Assembly: GCA_949751835.1 (NCBI GenBank)
Contig: CATKHK010000035.1
Location: 310,001 to 374,000 of the forward strand
DNA: 64,000 nt
Direction: 5' to 3'
Origin: Blepharisma japonicum
Lineage: Eukaryota; Ciliophora; Heterotrichea; Heterotrichida; Blepharismidae
In this document: positions 51,864 to 64,000 of the stretch, piece by piece
Layout: every line of letters starts with the position of its first letter
Numbering within the stretch: position 1 is the stretch's first letter
Notes under the pieces: model-generated
Told to the model about the DNA's origin: nothing
The model's database searches: none
What the model saw: only the letters and a program-made list of their open reading frames with translations
Program-made: the position numbers and the translations under genes

Positions 51864-54473
51864 TTATTGAGAACCGAAATTAAAGATAAATCCATCATAA
51901 CGGTCTGGAGCCATTCTAGAATTAGAAGAAAACCAAATAGTGCACACTGAGTCTCCGACGTCTAGAGAAATAGAAGCAGACAATGTAGTGTAAGTCCCTC
52001 CTCTATAAAATACGACACTCTGAGGCTTTCTGTTTATGCCATATATTACAATAGTCGAAATATATGGAAATTCCCCTTGAATCATTTTATATCCCCTATT
52101 AACTGTTTGAATAGTTAAAACTGTTGAAGTTGCGTTTTTGTTTCAGTAATTGTAGTGAATCTGTGTGTAATGGCCTCTACTTAATGTGTCCAATGAAACA
52201 CCATCGTCGAAAACAACGTCCCCTTGAGCTTTTCCATTTTGATCCAAAGCAACAATTAGAGTAATTGGAGATTTTCTAAGTGTTTGGACATCAAGAACAG
52301 TATCATATGTGTCCAAAGTTGGAATTATATGTCCGCCTCTAATATGAATAGGAATATCTCCTGGAAGTGTCATATCTAGATACACTGAATTTTGTGCGTC
52401 CAATATAGTTTTATTGCCGTTATAAAGATTATACCAAATATCATCTGGGAAATATGAAACTCTTCCATCAATTCCTTCCCATAAACAAGGATGCACAATA
52501 AGTCCTTTTCCAAGCATGAAATGGTCTGTATCATTATTTAATAAGTTAGCGTCATCAGGATACTCGAAAAAGGTAGGCTTAAAGAAAATTCCTCCATTTT
52601 GGCTTACTTTGAACATTTCAGTAGAAAAATAAAGCATCAGCCAATACTTATTCCTTATCGCCATCTTTGAAGTTTCTAATAGAGTTGAGCCAAATGACCA
52701 TGGGTATTGATCAATACTATCGATACCGTTGTGATTCCTGGAAAATGGGTACAAAGTTCCAAGTTGGGTCCATCTTGTACATAACTCTTCAGTCGTGTTT
52801 AGCTGGAAGCCGCAAATATCAGCTCCAGAAAACGGAATCCCAAACATACCGAAATTATAAATTCCAGTAATTGAGTATTCCAAGAATGGCCATAGTGATT
52901 TATTGTCCCCTGACCATTTGCCTGCATATCTTCCAGTCCCTACAAAACTGCTTCTAGTGATAATAAAAGGCCTCAGGTTATAGACTTCGAAATATCTATA
53001 AGTGGCTATTGTTTCTGTAAACCCAAATAAGCTGTGGACATCATATTCAAGCAATCCTCCATAGTGCTTAGATGCTACATCTAATGATCTCATATTGACA
53101 TCTTCACCTGGAGTATAAGGCATGGTTAGGTTGGTAATAATTGAGGGGGGATGCCCAACTTCTCCGTTAATAAAATTACTAGCTTCGTTCATATCAATCC
53201 AAATCCCTGAAAAAGAGGTCAATTTTTCAAATTTCAGCATCTGGTTAAACCAAAAATTGGTAGAGTTAGGGTGGAAAAAGTCAACGAACACTGAAGTTCC
53301 TGGCCAGACTACACCCTGAGTCGGTCCATTAACATAAGCACTTTGAATATAAATATTTTGCTTTAACCCATCCACATAAGCTTGATATGATGGATCTACA
53401 CCAATTCCTGCATCTGTAATAGGAACAAAATGCTTGTTTTCTGAATGGAGCTGGTTTATCCATTTAGTGAAGTTCGCCTGAGGGTAGGTTTCAGGGTTCA
53501 ATGTAAAATCTTGGAATTCGTTCATATAATCGATATCAATCCACATGACATCTAAAGGAATGTCATAGTGAGTGTAATCATTCGTAACTTCTTCTACTAC
53601 TGAAATGTTTTGGAATCCGTATCGGCATTGGTGCCACCCTAAGCCCCACCATGGAGTTAAAACGGGATAGCCAATGAGATCATGATACTGACTTACCACA
53701 GTTTCTGGTTCTGGGCCAATAAATACATAGAAATCAATAATTCCTCCAGTAGTTCTAAATTCCACATAATTTCCCCCAACTGTTGCTGACATCGCATTGG
53801 AGTTCAGCAACAAAGCTCCATGAGCTGTAAGGTCATCGTCAATTGCAAGGTAAAATGGCTGAGAACTATACATATTTGAGTCAGGGGTATTTCCTGTATC
53901 AATAGGTGAACCTCTATCACGTGAATATAGAGTATAAGTCCCTTGAGCCAGCACAAAAGTTGAAACTCTTTCCCCAAGCCCCATAACGCTTATAGGATAT
54001 CCTACGTAATTAGAAAATCCTATATCTTGATTATTATAGAAGAATGGCTGAGCAGGGTTTAAGCTGAAGACAACCTTTTTGTCTGAATTTCTTGTAATTT
54101 GTATAGAGAGAGGACCTTCTGTTATTGGAGAAATAGTGTATTGAAGATTTTTTCCTGATGGAGTATAAGAGGGGATTGATATAGGAACTTCCCACCTTTC
54201 ATGGTCAGTATCAGTGATTTTGATTCGGACTCGGGTATCAGTATCAAATTGGATTGATATTGTTAGATTCTGGATGACTTGCTCCACTGCTGCTTGATAA
54301 CTGGCTGAGGAGAGTTCAGCTAATGCAACAATTCCATATGTGGAAGTAGTAACCTTAGTAACCACATATGGGTTTGCATCAGCTGAAAGAATTGTATCTG
54401 CAAGGAATTTATTGTTGATAGCACATGCTAGACTGAGTAAAGTAAAGAGAAGATGGACTGAACTCCTTACCAT
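51864..54473 (-). CDS. Lysosomal/secreted GH31 alpha-glucosidase
   Basis: 869 residues with TGA at 52143-52145 as Trp. Start at Met 54473, which begins a signal peptide (MVRSSVHLLFTLLSLACA); an in-frame Met 57 bp upstream is possible but hides it. N-terminal beta domain, then the (beta/alpha)8 barrel: WGLGWHQCRYGFQN, DVMWIDIDYM, nucleophile D427 in FSGIWIDMNEASNF, acid/base D523 in KWSGDNKSLWP, and GADICGFQ. It ends with beta domains (LPGDIPIHIRGGHIIP). Like acid alpha-glucosidase, it should release glucose from glycogen or starch in food vacuoles or lysosomes. TAA stop. Confidence 0.95.
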
Positions 54474-54672
54474 ATTAATTATCTCTCCAAGCTTAAATCT
54501 TTTCCTATGTATATTTTCATAAAAAATCACACAAATAATTAAATAGCCTTAAATCTCTACTACAATCTAGAAAATACGATACTAAAAATTTAATTTATAA
54601 AAAAATCGACATTTTTATGTATGGATCTTTTCATTTCCCTTATTTCCTTTGTGCTAAATTTAAACACTATAG

Positions 54673-55887
54673 TTAATCTAATAAAATTTCTTTTTGAGCT
54701 TGCTTTTTCTTGATCAATTCAATTAGACTTTGAAAAATAGCCATGCTCTCCATTGGAAACTCTGACCTCGCCATATTCATCCTATGTGCTCTTCTCCAGA
54801 TCCACTCAAATAAAAGTTCTTGCAAAAATGGTGCTGTCCTATATCTATTTTTTATATCATATTTCGTCCAAAGCCAAATATTATTGATGTTATTATGGTG
54901 TATGAATTTATTGTCAGGGTCTTCAAACCCTCTTGATTTGTCAAGCTGATAATGCGGGAATCCATAATCTTCGAGTCTTCCGTAGCAACCCAGTTTGTCA
55001 GTAATCACAACAGTCCCTACTTCGCAGCGCTTTTGGATTATAGGAATTATATATTCTGGGCTTCTTCTTGGCAAGCATTCTATATAGCATAGCTTGCTGC
55101 CTCTTTCAAAAAGAATCATAATTCATTTTTGAGGGGTTTTTCCTTTGCCGATTTCTATTTTTCTGCGGACAAAGTTTATTGTCCCAATTTCTACTACACC
55201 TGTAAATGGTGTGAATGTCGAGAGAAAATCACTTACCACGAGTTTTCTCAGCTTTCTAGATAATTTGGAGATACAAGAAGGAGTTACATCAAGCAACTGA
55301 GCGACTTCGTTATCTTTCATATAGCATACCCATAGAAACATGAAAAGCACAATTTTTTCTATAGTAAAAGAGACTTTTTCTCAGTAAGTCCCCTCTTTTA
55401 CGTTATATTTTACACCACATTTTTCACATCTAAATAAATACCCCATATATCCATTGTACTCAAAATTCATTTCTTTGTAGTAGCCATTTTCATCAATGCA
55501 GCTTTTGCATTTTCTAGACTCTGGAAAAATCCCAGATCTAAGTAAAAATGCCATAGCAAGTTCTTGGTCTTTACAAATATTAAAAAACACATGAGGTAGA
55601 GGAAGCTCTTTCAAATAGTCTACAAGTCTCTGGTTTTTGACTTTTCTTGTAGGACATAAATAACCTTGTGTTTTTTCTTCTGCAGAAGTACGAAGCTTGG
55701 TTTCTAATGAGTGAATTTTGGCTAAATATTTTTTGATTTCCTGCTGCTCCTTGCATTTTATTTTCATAAGCTTTTTATTGTAGATTAGCTGGGAGTTGAA
55801 TTGAGCATAATTCTGTAAGCAGCAGGAGCAGTCGTAGAAGTTTTGAGCGTGATCTTGGCAGATATGATCTGGAGCGGCATCCCCCAT
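54673..55887 (-). CDS. Transposase-derived protein, Merlin/IS1595 (DDE) type, catalytic residues lost
   Basis: 404 residues in one open frame with two TGA as Trp (GTYWEKVSF; TPQKWIMILF); TAA stop. Residues ~1-30 hold a His/Cys cluster (HICQDHAQNFYDCSCC). Residues ~125-170 are a zinc ribbon (CKSC ... FRCEKCGVKYN) as in IS1595/ISXO2 transposases, then an HTH (NEVAQLLDVTPSCISKLSRK). The RNase-H-like domain keeps the Merlin layout: VVEIGTINFVRRK, VITDKLGCYGRLEDYGF, HHNNINNIW. The first Asp is Gly (235), the second Asp (297) is kept, and the Glu is Asn (335). So strand transfer is not expected; the intact frame suggests a domesticated DNA-binding role. No terminal inverted repeats seen. Confidence 0.85.
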
Positions 55888-56287: not shown

Positions 56288-59200
56288 ATGGCATTTTCTT
56301 TAATTATTCCTTTGCTACTTTTCCCTTGTATTTCTCAATTACTTATCTCGAACAGCTACCTCGGCATTTCTTATGGCAAATCCGATACAATTTCAGTTTC
56401 ATTAACTTATTACCCTTCATCATCAGTAACTATTTCCTTAAGCGAATCAAGCTCATTGATTAGTCTATCCCCGACATCTCTAACTTTTACCTCATCTGAT
56501 TATTTAAACCCTAAAACTTTTACAGTTTCTGTAATCTCAGTTCCAACAGCTCAGTCGAGCCTTTATTCAACTGTAATTATATCTTTATCTATTACCTCCT
56601 CAGATGTCAATTATAACAGCCTTCAATATTATACGACTGTCGATATAATAAATATTTGCACTCCAGGATCATATGACTGGACTAATACAAATACATGCTC
56701 AAGTTCTATAACAAATTTTGTAAGTTCTTCTAACACTATTGCTCCATGTAACACTGGTTATTACTATAATTCTGGAAGCTGTAATATTTGTGAAACTGGG
56801 AAATATTGCTATGATGGGAAAACGAATAGAAGCTGCCCAACTGGGTATTATAGCTCAAGCCAGGGGGCAGAATCTTGTAGTAAAATACCTGAAGGGTACT
56901 ATGCAAGCTCAGCTGTTTCTAGTCCTACAGCTGTAAGTGTCGGCTCTTTCACTATTCCAGGCCAGTCCAGCCAAACTCAATGCTTACAAGGAGACTATTG
57001 CCCAAACACAAATCTTCATAATGAAATAAAATGCCCATTGGGGACTTATTCAAGTGCAGGCAAAGCAAGCTGCATAACCTGTCCAGAAGGAAATTATTGT
57101 AGTTATAAATCAGCTACAGCTTGCCCAGCTAATACTTATTCTCCTGCAGGGAGACCTGAATGCATTTCTGGCTCTTACAGTGCTGCTTGTAGTAGTGTAA
57201 AGATATCTCCTGCTTATGAAGGTTATTATATCACTAGCAACACTCTCACTGCTTGCCCAGCATATCAAGTGTGTAGTGCAAGATTTAATTATAACCCTTT
57301 TACATGCCCTCAAGGAACTTATTATAATTCTGGAACTTGTTCTCTCTGTGCTGGAAGTCAGCAATGCCTCAATGGGAGTGGAGTTAATTGCAATTCTCCT
57401 TATATCAGTTGAGGGTTATTATGTCTTGGCTGCCCTTATCCTCAGTACACTTATTATTATTCTTGCTATCAAGCTGAAGTTGGATGGCGAATTGCTATAA
57501 GCCATCAAGCCTGCTGAACTAATTATTTTTCCCCTCTTGGAGATACAAAATGTTATTTTTGTTCTCCAGGATATGCATGCTCTGGCTATTATAATGGAAG
57601 CCCTAATACTAACTTAGGTCCTACTAATACAATATATAGACCGTATGATGGCACGGCTTATGGATGCCCTGCTGGGACTTATAATGATATAGCAGGAGCT
57701 ACAGATTTTAGATCATGCAAAATATGTCCTGGAGGATTTTTATGTAGTGCATCTCTTGGAGCTAAGCCAGCATCTGGAGTTTGCTCAAATGATAATGGTG
57801 GCAATGGTCAATGTGCAAAATGCGATATAGGTAACTTTTGCCCTGAAGGCTCACAAAATGGCTGAGTTTTTCAATGTCCAGAAGGAACTTATTCGTCTGC
57901 AAAAAGTTATAATTCTGTATGAGCTCACTGCAATACATGCTCAATTGGAAATGCTTGCCCTATACAGTCATCAATTGGTATAAATATAAATCCCGGATGC
58001 TATAGCAGCGATTTAAAGACATTTACATATTGCCCTTATGGGACTTATAGCAGTGGGGGAATATCCTCAAAAGGAGGCTGCCAGACATGTAATAATTATG
58101 TATCATGCTATGAAGGAAGCTCAAGCCCTATTCCTTGTTTATTAGGGTATGTTAACAAAAATCCGTTAGGAAGATGTGAGCCTTGCTCTGCAGCCTCTTA
58201 TGTATGCCCTGCAAGCAGCTGATCAAGTTCTCAAATTTCATGCGCAGCTGGCTATTGGTGTCCTGTAGGGTCTTACTCTATTTACCTATTTTCCTGCCAA
58301 AGTGGAATGTATAGCCTTGCTGGAATGTCAGCGCAAGATGATTGCGTGGAATGTCCCTCAACTGTATATTGTCCAGCAGCTAGTACAACAAATACAGGCA
58401 CATCTTGTGGAGCTGGTTTTTATTGCCCACAAGGAACTCCTATGAAAAATTACTTTTCATGCCCTCAAGGCACATATTCATCAGCTACAAACAATTATCA
58501 AAGCTCAGACTGTTCTCCATGTACTGCTGGATATGCGTGTCCGACTGGCTCAAGTTCTCCTATTGCTTGTGCGACTGGCAATTTTTGTCCTTCTGGCACA
58601 GAAAGGCCTGATCAATATGCCTGTCCTGCAGGTACTTATACTTCAAGCACCTCCTTGGTTTTAGCATCTCAATGTACAGCATGTGACCAAGGATATTATT
58701 GCCCTTCGGGATCATCAAAAGAATTCTCATGCCCTCCTGGAACTTATTTAACTGCAACCCGAAGCATTTCGATTTCTAACTGCGTTGTATGTCCATCAGG
58801 AAAATATTGTACAAGTTTAAGCACTGTTACTCCAACAGATTGCGGGGTCGGATTTTATTGTGATTCTGGAGCAACTCTTCCTTTAAAATGCTTACAAGGA
58901 TATTATTGTGATACTATAAACTTGACTTACAAAACAATGATTCTAAATTTATGCCCAGCTGGCTATTTATGCCCATCTCAGCTTTCAACAAATCCATCAG
59001 GAAACCCAAGTTATTTATGCATAGCTGGCTATTATTGTATAACTGCTGCATTTTTGCCATATCCATGCATACCTGGAACTTTTCTATCTACAACTGGAGG
59101 TACTCAATTAAGCGATTGCTCTCCAGCTGTAGCTGGAACTTATATTGACACTTTTGCTTCAACTTCAAATACAACTCCGTGTCCAGCTGGATATTACTGC

Positions 59201-62200
59201 CCAAGCAAGACTACAATTCCTTTACCATGCCCAGCAGGCACGTACCAGCCGAATACTAGTCAAACTGACTTCTCAAGTTGCGTTATTTGCCCAGCAGGAC
59301 AGTTTTGCAGTTTTATAGCTACAATAACTCCTACTGATTGTCCAGCTGGAAGCTACTGCATTGCAGGATCTCTAGTTGCAGTTAAATGCCCAATAGGAAC
59401 TTATGGAAGCTCAACAAAACTGCAAAAAGTGTCAGATTGCACTCAGTGTGATGCAGGAAAATATTGCAATGTCCCTGGCTTGACAAGTTACAAAGGAAGT
59501 TGCGCTGCTGGATTTCTTTGCACTGGAGGGTCGATAACGCCAAATCCAGTTGGCCAAAGTTATGGAGATGTCTGTCCAAGTGGGTCATATTGTCCTGCAG
59601 GGACTACTGCAGCTCAAGCATGCCCCTTGGGAACTTTTAATAACTATCCAGGGGGGAAATCAAGTGGAGATTGTATAGCATGTCCTGCTGGATTCTACTG
59701 TGCAAGCACAACGTCTGCTACACCTACAGGGCCTTGCGATGCTGGCTATTATTGTACAGGATCAGCTACTACAGCTCAACAAAATCCAGCTCAGGCAGGA
59801 TTTTATACAACAGTTGGAAGTCCAAACCAGATTCCTTGTGCTAAAGGTACTTATCAAGACCAAACAGGTCAGCCTTCTTGCAGCCCATGCACAACTGGCT
59901 ACTATTGCCCAAACACTCAAATGACTACTCCTATAGACTGCCCTTCAGGCTATTATTGTCCATCAGGAACAATTGGCCCTTTTCCATGTCCACCTGGATC
60001 TTATCGAGACACTGCAAATGCCGGGGCTAGCTCAGACTGCATTCCTTGCACTGCAGGGTCTTATTGTGCCTTATATGGCTTAAGTGCTGTTTCTGGGCTA
60101 TGTGCAAGTGGTTTCTTTTGCGAAATAGGCTCGCCTTATCAATATCCATCTACATTGGTAGATACTGGGAGCACAAAATATGGTCCATGCCCTAAAGGGT
60201 ACTGATGTGGAGTCGGCACAATTATTAGGACTCAAAATGCATGCCCTGCTGGATCTTTTAACCCTTCTGAAGGGGGAAAATCATCAAGCGACTGCTTGCC
60301 GTGCTCAGCTGGAAGATATTGCACAGGAACTCACAATGTTGATGACAGCCAGCTTTGTCCTGCTAATTATTATTGTCCTGAATCTAGCGTTTCTGGAACT
60401 GATCATCAATGTGCAGCAGGATATTATTGCCCTGGGGGAACAGCGAGTCAAATTTCATGTATGCCTGGGTATTATCAAGACTCACAAGGGAAATCTTCAT
60501 GCAAAAACTGCCCCATTGGCTATTATTGCCCAAGAGGAACTAGTGATTATACTCTAAATCCTTGCCCATCCGGAGCATATTGCCTTTTAAACACTCCGTT
60601 TTCCTATACAAGCAGGTGTCAGCCAGGGACTTTTAATATAAATACCCAACAAACATTATCCTCTGCATGCATAAGTTGCACAGGAGGCTATTATTGCCCA
60701 TTATATGGAATTGGGAGCTTAGCCTCATTTCAGTGTTCAGAAGGATTTTATTGCAGTGGAGGAGCTATTGTATCAAAGCCTATGATAGGGAGTTTATATG
60801 GGGGAATCTGTGTTAAAGGGCAATATTGTCCATTAGGGTCAAGCTCAGCAACAAGTTGTGATGGAGGGTATTATTGCTCAAAAGATCAATTAAACAATAA
60901 AAGTGGGCAATGTAAGGCTGGATATTACTGCTCTGGAGGATCTTTGGTTCCAAGTCCAAAGACTCCAACTTTTTCAAACGGAGATATCTGTCCTAAAGGA
61001 AATTACTGTCCACAAGGGTCTAGCGCTCCAATTCCATGCAGTTCTGGATATTATTTACCATATACAGGAGCTTCACTTGCTTCAGAATGCATTAAATGCC
61101 CAGCTGGTTATTATTGCCCGACAAGTGGCATTGATTTTCCTGCAACTCTATGCACGGCTGGGTATTACTGCCCAGGAGGTGACGTCAACCCTACACTTAT
61201 TTGCAGTTTAGGACATCAATGTCCTACTGGCTCTAGTGAAGAAATACAATGCCCTGATGGATATTTTCAAGATTCAACAGGGCAAGCAAGTTGTAAGCCA
61301 TGCACAGCAGGAAATTATTGTGAGCTAGGTGCTATTCAGGAAACTTTATGTCCAAAAGGCTATTTTTGTCCTGATTTTACAGGCTATAGATACACAAATC
61401 CATGTTCTATAGGCTATTATAATGATATCGAAGGAAAATCAAGCCCGTCTGATTGCAAGCCATGCACTGCAGGATCTTACTGCGAGCTCCCAGGACTTGA
61501 AACCCCTACTGGTTCTTGTTTAGGCGGATGATACTGCAGTGGGAGCTCTGTAAATGATAGGCCAATCGTATCTAGCTTAGGAGGAATCTGCCCATCAGGG
61601 ACCTATTGCCCAACAGGCTCTTCAACTCCTTTATCATGCACTCCTGGCTCTTATTGCAATCAGCAAGGTTTGGCTTCTACTGCAGGACACTGCTCAGTTG
61701 GGTTTTATTGCATCTCTGGCTCCAAAACTTGGGTTCCTATTGATGGAGCTATGGGAAATATGTGCGGACAAGGCAAATATTGTGATGTTGGAGCTTCTTC
61801 AGAAACTAACTGCCCTATTGGAACTTTTAGCCCAAGCAAAGGTTTAGGTCCCGTAAATGACTGCTTTTCTTGCCCATATGGCAATTTTTGTGGGAGCACT
61901 GGGTTGATTGCACCGACAGGGGTGTGCGATATTAATTACTATTGTGGAGCAGGAGAAAGCATTTCCAATCCTAATTTGTGTACTGCTGGGCATTATTGTC
62001 CGACTAATAGCTTTGAGCCTATACCATGTGACATGGGCACTTACCAATCAAGTGCTGGAAAGTCTTCTTGCCTAAGCTGTCCAGCCGGAAAATATTGCTT
62101 AGGAAATGTAAATACACCTCAAGACTGCCCAACAGGCCATTATTGCCCATCTCCAACAAGATTTGACATTGAATTTCCGTGTAAAAGTGGTACCTATGCT

Positions 62201-64000
62201 TCAGTCACTGGTCTATCTGCTTGCACTAATTGCCCAAGTGGAAGTTACTGCTCTCCAGGATCTTCAACTTCTAGCAACAAATGCTTATACTACTCATATT
62301 GTCCCATAAATACAGAAATTTCAATTATTTGTCCATTAGGCTATTACAATTCCAACACTTACGGACTTTCCTCTTCATCTCAATGCACTCCTTGCCCATC
62401 TGGTTCTTACTGTGTAGATGGGAGGATAACAGGACAATGCGAAGCTGGATATTTATGTGTTTTAGCAAGCCCTACCCCGACACCAAGTGGATCCAATTCA
62501 TATGGATATCCATGCCCTACCGGGAACTACTGCCCAAAAGGTACTTTATTGCCTGTTCCATGCCCATCAGGACTATTTAGAAAGATAACAGGGGGTAAAA
62601 GGCAAGAAGACTGCACCCAATGCCCACCTGGATCTTATTGTGTTAGTACAAATCCTGAGCCAATTTCATGCCCTATGGGGTATTTTTGTCCTCAAGGAGT
62701 CAGCAAGCCGATTTCTTGCCCTCAAAGGACATATGGAAGCAAAGCAGGAGGCACAGATCAATCCGTATGCTTAGCTTGTCCGGGGGGGTATTTGTGCACA
62801 AGATCAGGAATTGGAGACTATACTGCGTTCCCATGTAATAAGGTAGGATATTATTGTGTTCTTGGCGCTTCTGCACCTACTGCTTGCCCTCCAGGAACTT
62901 ACTCATCGTCACTTACAGCAGCTTCTATAGATGACTGTAATCTCTGTCCAGGAGGAAATCAATGCCCAGGGGCTTCTGATATTATTTTACCTTGTAGAGC
63001 AGGAACTTACTGCCCGAAAGGATCTCCAATTGAAAAAGCTTGTTCTATTGGTTACTATTGTCATGCAAATACAACAACTCCAGCTCTATGCCCTTTGGGC
63101 TATTACTGCCCAAAATATGACCAGAATGATTTATCCCAGTATCAAGACTCTAGTGAGCCACCAATTCCGTGTCCAGATGCATATATATGCCCAGTAGGTT
63201 CTTTTGAACCATTAAGATGCAAGCCAGGCTATTATGCGAGCAATAATAATTGTGTCGAATGCGGTAGTGGAACTTATTCTGATGGTACTTATGCAAAATG
63301 CAAAAACTGTTATGGAGGATTTATCTGCGCTTCAGCAGCTTCTAGACCAAATCCTGTTTCTCTAAAATATCATGGCGGTTACCCTTGCCCAGCAGGCTAT
63401 TATTGTCCATCAGGCTCTAAAACTCCAACAGCTTGCCCAATGGCTACTTACAATCCTTCTACATCCAAAACCTCTCAAGATTCTTGCTTGCCATGCCCCT
63501 CCAACACATATTCAGATACCACCGGATCATCTAAATGTCTCCCCTGCGGTACAAGTGCTTATTCCAGCGAAGGAAGTACAACTTGCGCATGCAAAGGTGC
63601 CAATCGATCATACCAAAAGTCTGACGGTAGATGCATATGCATCCCTTCATATGAATTTTTACAAGATGGAATTTACAGCTCAAATGAAGATTCTTCAGTT
63701 GACTGTTTCCCTATGGTCTATTCACATTGTGACCAAACACAAATAAGAAATCCTGATGGGTCTTGCTCTATGAAATCTGACTGTAGTAATGAATGCAATG
63801 GCAAATCAGGGACTCGCATGAGCAATGGCATATGCGAATGTGATAAAGTAAAGACTAGTGATGGCATTTGCAATAAAAATTGTAGAGAAAATGCACCAAA
63901 AGTTACAATGATGGGGAGTGTTACAAGTATTTTTGATCCAACTACCCAGAAATTTACAAATATTTCTTTAGGGAACAATAATGGATATTATGGTCACACA
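56288..64000 (+). CDS. Giant Cys-rich GCC2/GCC3-repeat surface protein (3' end outside window)
   Basis: At least 2571 residues: the frame is unbroken from ATG 56288 to the last base when TGA is read as Trp (sites include 57410, 57515, 57863, 57920, 58221, 60203 and 61529). Residues 1-16 form a signal peptide. Residues ~20-120 are a beta-sandwich like secreted-protein Calx-beta or Ig-like folds (LSPTSLTFTSSDYLNPKTF). From ~125 on, dozens of ~40-60-residue repeats follow 'CPxGxYCxxG...C...GTYxxxxG...CxxCPxGYYC', i.e. GCC2/GCC3 modules. From about residue 2415 the pattern changes to EGF-like Cys-rich sequence (SDCSNECNGKSGT, NGICECDKVKTS). Ciliates have many such surface proteins; a membrane anchor would lie downstream. 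Ligand unknown. Confidence 0.9.

What the first reader, a model, noticed from the sequence alone, without database searches (positions are those of the whole stretch)
54673..55887. Intact-frame Merlin/IS1595 transposase relative with a dead active site
Zinc ribbon, HTH and RNase-H fold are all preserved over 404 codons, yet the first Asp is Gly (235) and the Glu is Asn (335), with only Asp297 left. A conserved frame with lost catalysis and no terminal repeats fits domestication. In ciliates, domesticated transposases drive DNA elimination, so an inactive paralogue could be a DNA-binding cofactor.
Basis: partly seen in the sequence, partly recalled or inferred. Interest (0 to 1): 0.7.

Follow-up and report, generated by a model that had tools for sequence, protein, structure and literature searches.

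The report
Dead-site Merlin transposase kept by ciliate
This ciliate gene descends from a jumping-gene enzyme whose cutting site is lost but whose protein appears to have been kept by selection, one more member of a family of tamed transposases already reported in ciliates.

Summary
On the minus strand, 54673-55887 encodes 404 aa with two TGA codons read as Trp. It matches Pfam DDE_Tnp_IS1595 (E 1.2e-8). Aligned with 14 relatives, the triad columns read G235, D297, N335; the 10 bacterial transposases in the alignment have D, D, E. The same 45.2-Mb genome holds five such genes, all with open frames: three have complete DDE, and the window gene's sister reads D, C, I. The two incomplete genes form one clade (100/99). 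A codon model rejects neutral evolution for that pair and for the window branch alone (omega 0.06-0.14 by model, synonymous sites saturated). I found no convincing terminal repeats (5 of 100 shuffles matched the best) and no copies of its flanks.

Domestication is well supported; the proposed role in DNA elimination is plausible but untested here. The kind is known: DDE_Tnp_IS1595 proteins are published for Blepharisma (some strongly induced in development), Stentor (several without DDE), Oxytricha and Loxodes, and Paramecium PgmLs are triad-less subunits that serve an active paralogue. I read this as a new member of a known kind.

The parts
54673..55887 (-). 404-aa Merlin/IS1595-type transposase-derived gene, TGA = Trp (2 codons)
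55819..55860 (-). residues 10-23: N-terminal CxxH...CxxC cluster, putative zinc site, identical in 5 of 5 paralogues
55660..55743 (-). residues 49-76: best heptad-periodic stretch, putative coiled coil
   Evidence: own simple heptad score, no shuffle control
55417..55509 (-). residues 127-157: CxxC...CxxC zinc ribbon, aligns with that of the bacterial proteins in L023, L025, L026
55210..55371 (-). residues 173-226: region aligned with the part of bacterial IS1595 transposases before the catalytic domain (helix-turn-helix label recalled, not detected by Pfam)
54790..55209 (-). residues 227-366: RNase-H-like DDE_Tnp_IS1595 domain (boundaries from the alignment)
55183..55185 (-). codon 235: Gly in place of the first catalytic Asp
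54997..54999 (-). codon 297: second catalytic Asp, kept
54883..54885 (-). codon 335: Asn in place of the catalytic Glu
54862..54864 (-). codon 342: Lys conserved in 15 of 15 aligned proteins

Best explanation
It is a host gene derived from a Merlin/IS1595 transposase that belongs to a five-gene domesticated family and has lost its catalytic triad while its frame, zinc ligands and RNase-H-like domain stayed under purifying selection. The most likely mechanism is architectural. The protein probably dimerises or oligomerises through its N-terminal zinc/heptad region and RNase-H core, binds DNA through the zinc ribbon and HTH region, and acts as a non-cutting subunit beside one or more of the three DDE-intact paralogues during development of the new macronucleus. 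Shown by sequence: the family, the triad loss, the intact paralogues, the constraint and the lack of detectable transposon ends. Inferred: oligomerisation, DNA binding, partnership with the intact paralogues, and timing.
For: Five PF12762 loci in the genome, all with open frames of 394-406 aa. Triads: DDE in C8, C6 and C49; D-C-I in C94; G-D-N in the window. Window and C94 form a clade, 100/99. Omega = 1 on both triad-less terminal branches is rejected by 2dlnL about 143, and on the window branch alone by about 18. Within the RNase-H domain the values are 89.4 and 14.0 (p 3e-21 and 2e-4); freeing omega on these two branches gains little (2dlnL 3.33) and lowers it, so they are not relaxed against the rest. 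Neutral drift of the C94 coding sequence at 0.87 substitutions per codon leaves 11.5 stops on average, and 0 of 400 simulated copies stayed open. Seven of the eight window zinc ligands are invariant in all five paralogues. The locus sits between the open frame of a GH31 gene 142 bp away and a large open frame starting 400 bp away; both flanks gave one hit in the genome, themselves. Best inverted matches in the flanks are within shuffle range at 5 of 5 loci. Precedents: PgmLs lack the triad, bind Pgm and are needed for IES excision (PMC6143343, abstract and passages); DDE_Tnp_IS1595 is among the domains of the nine transposase genes in the 100 most induced Blepharisma genes (PMC9942806 passage).
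Against: No expression, binding or interaction data were available. Synonymous sites are saturated (third-position identity 0.365 against 0.278 by chance, window versus C94), so omega values are rough and part of the constraint could predate loss of catalysis. The free-ratio model puts omega 1.93 on the internal branch leading to the triad-less pair (2dlnL 13.8 over one ratio for six more parameters): selection there may have been relaxed or shifted, though the estimate is unstable. For the window branch alone in the N-terminal part, rejection of omega = 1 is weaker (2dlnL 7.2, p 0.007). The region aligned with the HTH is less well kept in the window protein (8 of 23 residues invariant in the intact paralogues) than in C94 (14 of 23), which does not favour preserved DNA specificity. 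The window's best inverted match was reached by only 5 of 100 shuffles, so a decayed repeat is not strictly excluded. The three intact paralogues could act without it.
Confidence: 0.5

Rival explanations
1. A domesticated triad-less transposase used outside DNA elimination, for example as a transcription or chromatin factor or as a repressor that occupies transposon ends, without partnership with the intact paralogues.
For: Kept frame and zinc ligands with lost catalysis fit any DNA-binding or scaffold role; Pgbd3 has no intact catalytic site but keeps DNA binding in primates (passage of PMC6143343).
Against: The N-terminal CHCC cluster and heptad stretch shared with the intact paralogues, and the published developmental expression of ciliate DDE_Tnp_IS1595 genes (PMC3558436 and PMC9942806 passages), favour a link to nuclear development.
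Confidence: 0.35
2. A decaying relic: an immobile transposase gene that has lost its active site and is on the way to a pseudogene.
For: Two of three catalytic residues are gone, and a sister gene has also lost two; the free-ratio model gives omega 1.93 on the branch leading to the pair.
Against: No stop in 404 codons; omega = 1 is rejected on the window branch (2dlnL about 18) and in its RNase-H domain (14.0); neutral simulation gives stops in 400 of 400 copies at 0.5, 0.87 and 1.2 substitutions per codon, and in 398 of 400 at 0.3.
Confidence: 0.08
3. An active enzyme with a rearranged or unusual catalytic site.
For: D297 and K342 remain, and some transposase families tolerate other third residues (recalled).
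Against: No acidic residue lies within five positions of the first Asp or the Glu except E233, which all 15 aligned proteins have; 14 of 15 keep D at the first position and 13 of 15 keep E at the third.
Confidence: 0.03
4. A member of a still mobile Merlin transposon.
For: Belongs to the IS1595/Merlin transposase family.
Against: No convincing terminal repeats, flanks found once, nearest paralogue only 44% identical, triad lost.
Confidence: 0.02

Closest known systems
Blepharisma stoltei MAC-encoded DDE_Tnp_IS1595 proteins (PMC9942806; outline, sections 8, 10 and 14 and passages seen, SI not seen)
   Same: Same Pfam domain, same genetic code, no flanking terminal repeats, reported as likely domesticated; some are strongly induced in development.
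   Different: The main-text parts I saw stress members with complete triads; I could not see whether this incomplete member is listed in SI Figs S9/S10. It may be the same gene or its orthologue.
Merlin-related proteins of Stentor coeruleus and S. roeselii (PMC8101967; passages seen)
   Same: [quoted passage not shown] domestication proposed.
   Different: Another heterotrich genus; sequences not available here for alignment.
Oxytricha DDE_Tnp_IS1595 macronuclear proteins (PMC3558436; abstract and passages seen)
   Same: Family called domesticated, in which 7 of 11 members keep the catalytic residues; expressed almost only in conjugation.
   Different: Reported with DDD residues; distant ciliate class.
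Paramecium PgmL1-5 (PMC6143343; abstract and passages seen)
   Same: Catalytically incomplete paralogues of a domesticated transposase kept beside an active one.
   Different: PiggyBac superfamily, not Merlin; the Paramecium role is shown by experiment, this one is not.
Bacterial IS1595-type transposases (10 plasmid-borne examples aligned, 9 annotated as IS1595 family or IS1595-like)
   Same: Zinc ribbon in three of ten (by eye), RNase-H-like domain, conserved Lys after the Glu.
   Different: All ten have DDE; none shows the N-terminal CHCC/heptad extension.

Membership tests
DDE_Tnp_IS1595 / Merlin-IS1595 transposase domain family | Profile match to PF12762 above its cut-off | tested here: met
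   35.5 bits against a cut-off of 27, E 1.2e-8; 5 of 5 loci over the cut-off
DDE_Tnp_IS1595 / Merlin-IS1595 transposase domain family | NCBIfam IS1595 transposase model NF033547 above its cut-off | tested here: inconclusive
   5 of 5 members match at E up to 1; only the intact C8 protein's score was shown (89.9 bits, cut-off 75)
Active Merlin/IS1595 transposon | Complete DDE triad | tested here: not met
   G235, D297, N335
Active Merlin/IS1595 transposon | Terminal inverted repeats | tested here: not met
   Best ungapped inverted match in 700-bp flanks scored 13; 5 of 100 shuffles did as well; AT-rich match 187 bp from the ATG. Borderline, and gapped repeats were not sought
Active Merlin/IS1595 transposon | 8-bp target-site duplications | not testable with these tools
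   Element ends cannot be placed without terminal repeats
Domesticated transposase | Purifying selection without mobility | tested here: met
   saturation limits precision
Domesticated transposase | Expressed, with a host function | not testable with these tools
   No RNA or phenotype data held
PgmL-like non-catalytic excision subunit (works like) | Catalytically incomplete paralogue beside a complete one in the same genome | tested here: met
   Three DDE-complete and two incomplete members
PgmL-like non-catalytic excision subunit (works like) | Binds the active paralogue and is needed for DNA elimination | not testable with these tools
   Needs pull-down and knockdown

The most novel reading that the evidence does not exclude
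Heterotrich ciliates run a second, Merlin-based DNA-editing complex beside PiggyMac: three active subunits (C8, C6, C49) and two non-cutting subunits (this gene and C94), a parallel from another transposase superfamily to the Paramecium Pgm/PgmL assembly.
Probability: 0.2. Interest if true: 0.65.

Novelty: new member of a known kind. Interest (0 to 1): 0.33.

Why it matters
If it is a non-cutting partner of the intact Merlin-like enzymes, dead-subunit recruitment would have evolved in two different transposase superfamilies in ciliates, which suggests a general rule for how transposases become precise genome-editing machines. The gene gives a clear knockdown and pull-down target. By itself, one more triad-less paralogue in a published family is modest.

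Tried and rejected
Relatives in public prokaryote genomes and viral contigs: 101 and 219 stretches matched the patterns, none was confirmed (the method leans on short peptide patterns and misses distant kin). Solved structures: no convincing relative by sequence profile (best E 0.29, a match over the heptad-rich stretch to B-cell receptor-associated protein 31; 0.15). Structure prediction never ran, so the fold and any oligomer interface are unmodelled. Erosion focused on the active-site pocket: not found; within five residues of the triad the two triad-less proteins keep 22 of 46 bacterial-majority residues against 36 of 69 for the intact three (Fisher p 0.71); in the rest of the domain 30 of 96 against 59 of 144 (p 0.14). 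Intron artefact: three GTA...AG stretches of 15-16 nt lie inside the frame (one of 15 nt at residues 66-71, two of 16 nt starting at codons 89 and 187). None matches a five-residue insertion in the paralogue alignment, but the 15-nt one lies in a weakly aligned linker, so it is not strictly excluded; it is far from the catalytic positions. The idea that Asn is a normal third residue of this family (recalled from IS1595 subgroup descriptions) was not borne out in this set: all 10 bacterial relatives have Glu in that column; the set was fetched with a DDE-complete query, which may favour Glu. Mutual rescue of the two triad-less proteins was rejected because neither has the Glu.

A correction: I first read the C94 triad as D-C-T, and the tree row bears that name; the column count shows D-C-I.

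Samples and rows dropped: of 55 plasmid records with a match, 40 were listed, 11 were fetched and 10 were aligned, two of them nearly identical (the Acinetobacter johnsonii pair). L032 was left out because its stretch also holds part of a drug-resistance gene. The codon model used the 378 of 425 alignment columns without gaps. Flank copy number was tested for the window locus only, terminal repeats for all five loci. Some branch lengths hit the upper bound, another sign of saturation.

Full report
What is there. The window's minus strand at 54673-55887 carries an ATG-to-stop frame of 404 codons with two TGA codons read as Trp. It matches Pfam PF12762 DDE_Tnp_IS1595 at E 1.2e-8 over residues 243-350. 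The open frame of a glycosyl hydrolase family 31 gene (51864-54530, minus) begins 142 bp beyond its stop, and a very long Cys-rich open frame starts 400 bp beyond its ATG on the other strand (56288 onwards, plus). GC is 35% in the gene against 18% and 23% in its flanks.

The active site. Residues 235, 297 and 335 are G, D and N. I aligned the protein with its four paralogues and ten plasmid-borne bacterial transposases, nine of them annotated as IS1595 family or IS1595-like. In these 15 rows the first column is D in 14 (the window is the exception), the second D in 14 (C94 is Cys), the third E in 13 (the window Asn, C94 Ile); the Lys seven residues on is present in 15 of 15. No acidic residue within five positions makes up for the losses.

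The family. The genome that holds the window (45,185,585 bases, 224 contigs) has five PF12762 loci, found alike by the window protein, by the Pfam model and by the intact C8 protein. All five have open frames, 394-406 aa. C8, C6 and C49 have the complete triad; C94 and the window gene do not. Window and C94 are 44% identical and form a clade with support 100/99 (the row name there calls C94 'DCT', which one search corrects to D-C-I). Both lost the Glu, to different residues; whether once or twice cannot be told.

Selection. Third codon positions of the window and C94 genes are 36.5% identical against 27.8% by chance, while first and second positions are 58.7% and 65.6% identical. A branch codon model with TGA as Trp gives omega 0.10 overall, and 0.063, 0.106 or 0.138 for the window branch depending on how branches are grouped; forcing omega = 1 on the two triad-less terminal branches costs 2dlnL about 143, and on the window branch alone about 18. 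In the RNase-H domain alone the costs are 89.4 and 14.0; in the N-terminal part 63.4 and 7.2. The triad-less terminal branches are not relaxed relative to the rest (2dlnL 2.9 for the whole gene; 2.13 and 3.33 for the two parts, in each case towards lower omega). Against this, the free-ratio model puts omega 1.93 on the internal branch leading to the pair (2dlnL 13.8 for six more parameters), which may mark relaxed or shifted selection around the loss of catalysis, or be an artefact of saturation. A neutral simulation starting from the C94 coding sequence leaves 11.5 stops on average at 0.87 substitutions per codon, the branch length that the omega = 1 model needs; 0 of 400 copies stayed open. 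Branch lengths are saturated, so omega is rough, and constraint from before the loss of catalysis cannot be fully separated, especially if the Glu was lost independently in the two genes.

Other parts of the protein. A Cys/His cluster (C10, H13, C20, C23) is identical in all five paralogues, and so are the zinc-ribbon positions C127, C154 and C157; C130 is Cys in the two triad-less proteins and Gly in that column of the three intact ones, which have CxC spacings instead. A heptad-rich stretch follows the first cluster in all five (simple score without a control). The ten bacterial relatives lack this N-terminal extension. Of residues invariant in the intact three, the window and C94 proteins keep 52 of 108 each in the RNase-H domain; in the region aligned with the HTH the window keeps 8 of 23 and C94 14 of 23.

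Mobility. The best ungapped inverted match between the 700-bp flanks is within shuffle range at all five loci; shuffles that did as well numbered 5 (window), 78, 89, 64 and 41 of 100. The 400-bp and 142-bp intergenic flanks of the window gene each gave one hit in the genome, themselves. The nearest paralogue is 44% identical, so no recent copy was found.

What is published. The Blepharisma stoltei MAC genome paper reports DDE_Tnp_IS1595 proteins without flanking terminal repeats, some with complete triads, and puts DDE_Tnp_IS1595 among the domains of nine transposase genes in the 100 most induced in development (PMC9942806; outline, sections 8, 10, 14 and passages). The companion paper says not all DDE/D domains in Blepharisma keep the triad (PMC9942856, passages). 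Stentor has 381-425-aa Merlin-related proteins, several without DDE, with no conserved terminal repeats, proposed as domesticated (PMC8101967, passages). Seven of 11 Oxytricha DDE_Tnp_IS1595 proteins keep catalytic residues, and the genes are expressed almost only in conjugation (PMC3558436, abstract and passages). Loxodes has two related proteins (PMC11441545, passage). Five groups of catalytically incomplete PgmLs bind Pgm and are essential for IES excision in Paramecium (PMC6143343, abstract and passages). A search combining IS1595, 'catalytically inactive' and 'domesticated' found nothing, and Merlin, domesticated, transposase and Stentor found only PMC8101967; supplements were not readable, so this gene may already be listed there.

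Reading. The gene is most likely a domesticated Merlin-type transposase without a working triad, under purifying selection. The partner-subunit model is the best-supported guess by analogy; it is not shown. The finding is a good example of a known phenomenon rather than a new one.

Noticed in passing
L011 1228-2787 (G000 contig C6 near 283422-284489): A 519-aa PiggyBac homologue whose frame by eye keeps three Asp motifs (SIDES, FFDRW, GGVDYFD), a candidate PiggyMac-type excisase in the same genome.
   Followed up: partly
L014-L022 (contigs C112, C5, C214, C9): Further PiggyBac-like stretches, seven of nine with TAA or TAG in the matched frame, either intron-split genes or decayed copies.
   Followed up: no
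window 56288-64000 (+): Open frame of at least 2571 codons of Cys-rich repeats running off the window end, resembling giant ciliate surface or secreted proteins (resemblance recalled).
   Followed up: no
window 51864-54530 (-): Glycosyl hydrolase family 31 gene; the 888-aa open frame begins at a GTG and may include an upstream extension.
   Followed up: partly
window, both strands: GTA...TAG spacing of 16 nt is more frequent (27) than any other length from 11 to 23 nt (11-22), in line with the tiny introns published for Blepharisma; 15 nt is not in excess (15).
   Followed up: no
L003-L005 zinc ribbon: The three catalytically complete paralogues have CxC spacings where the two triad-less ones share CxxC with bacterial IS1595-type proteins.
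   Followed up: no
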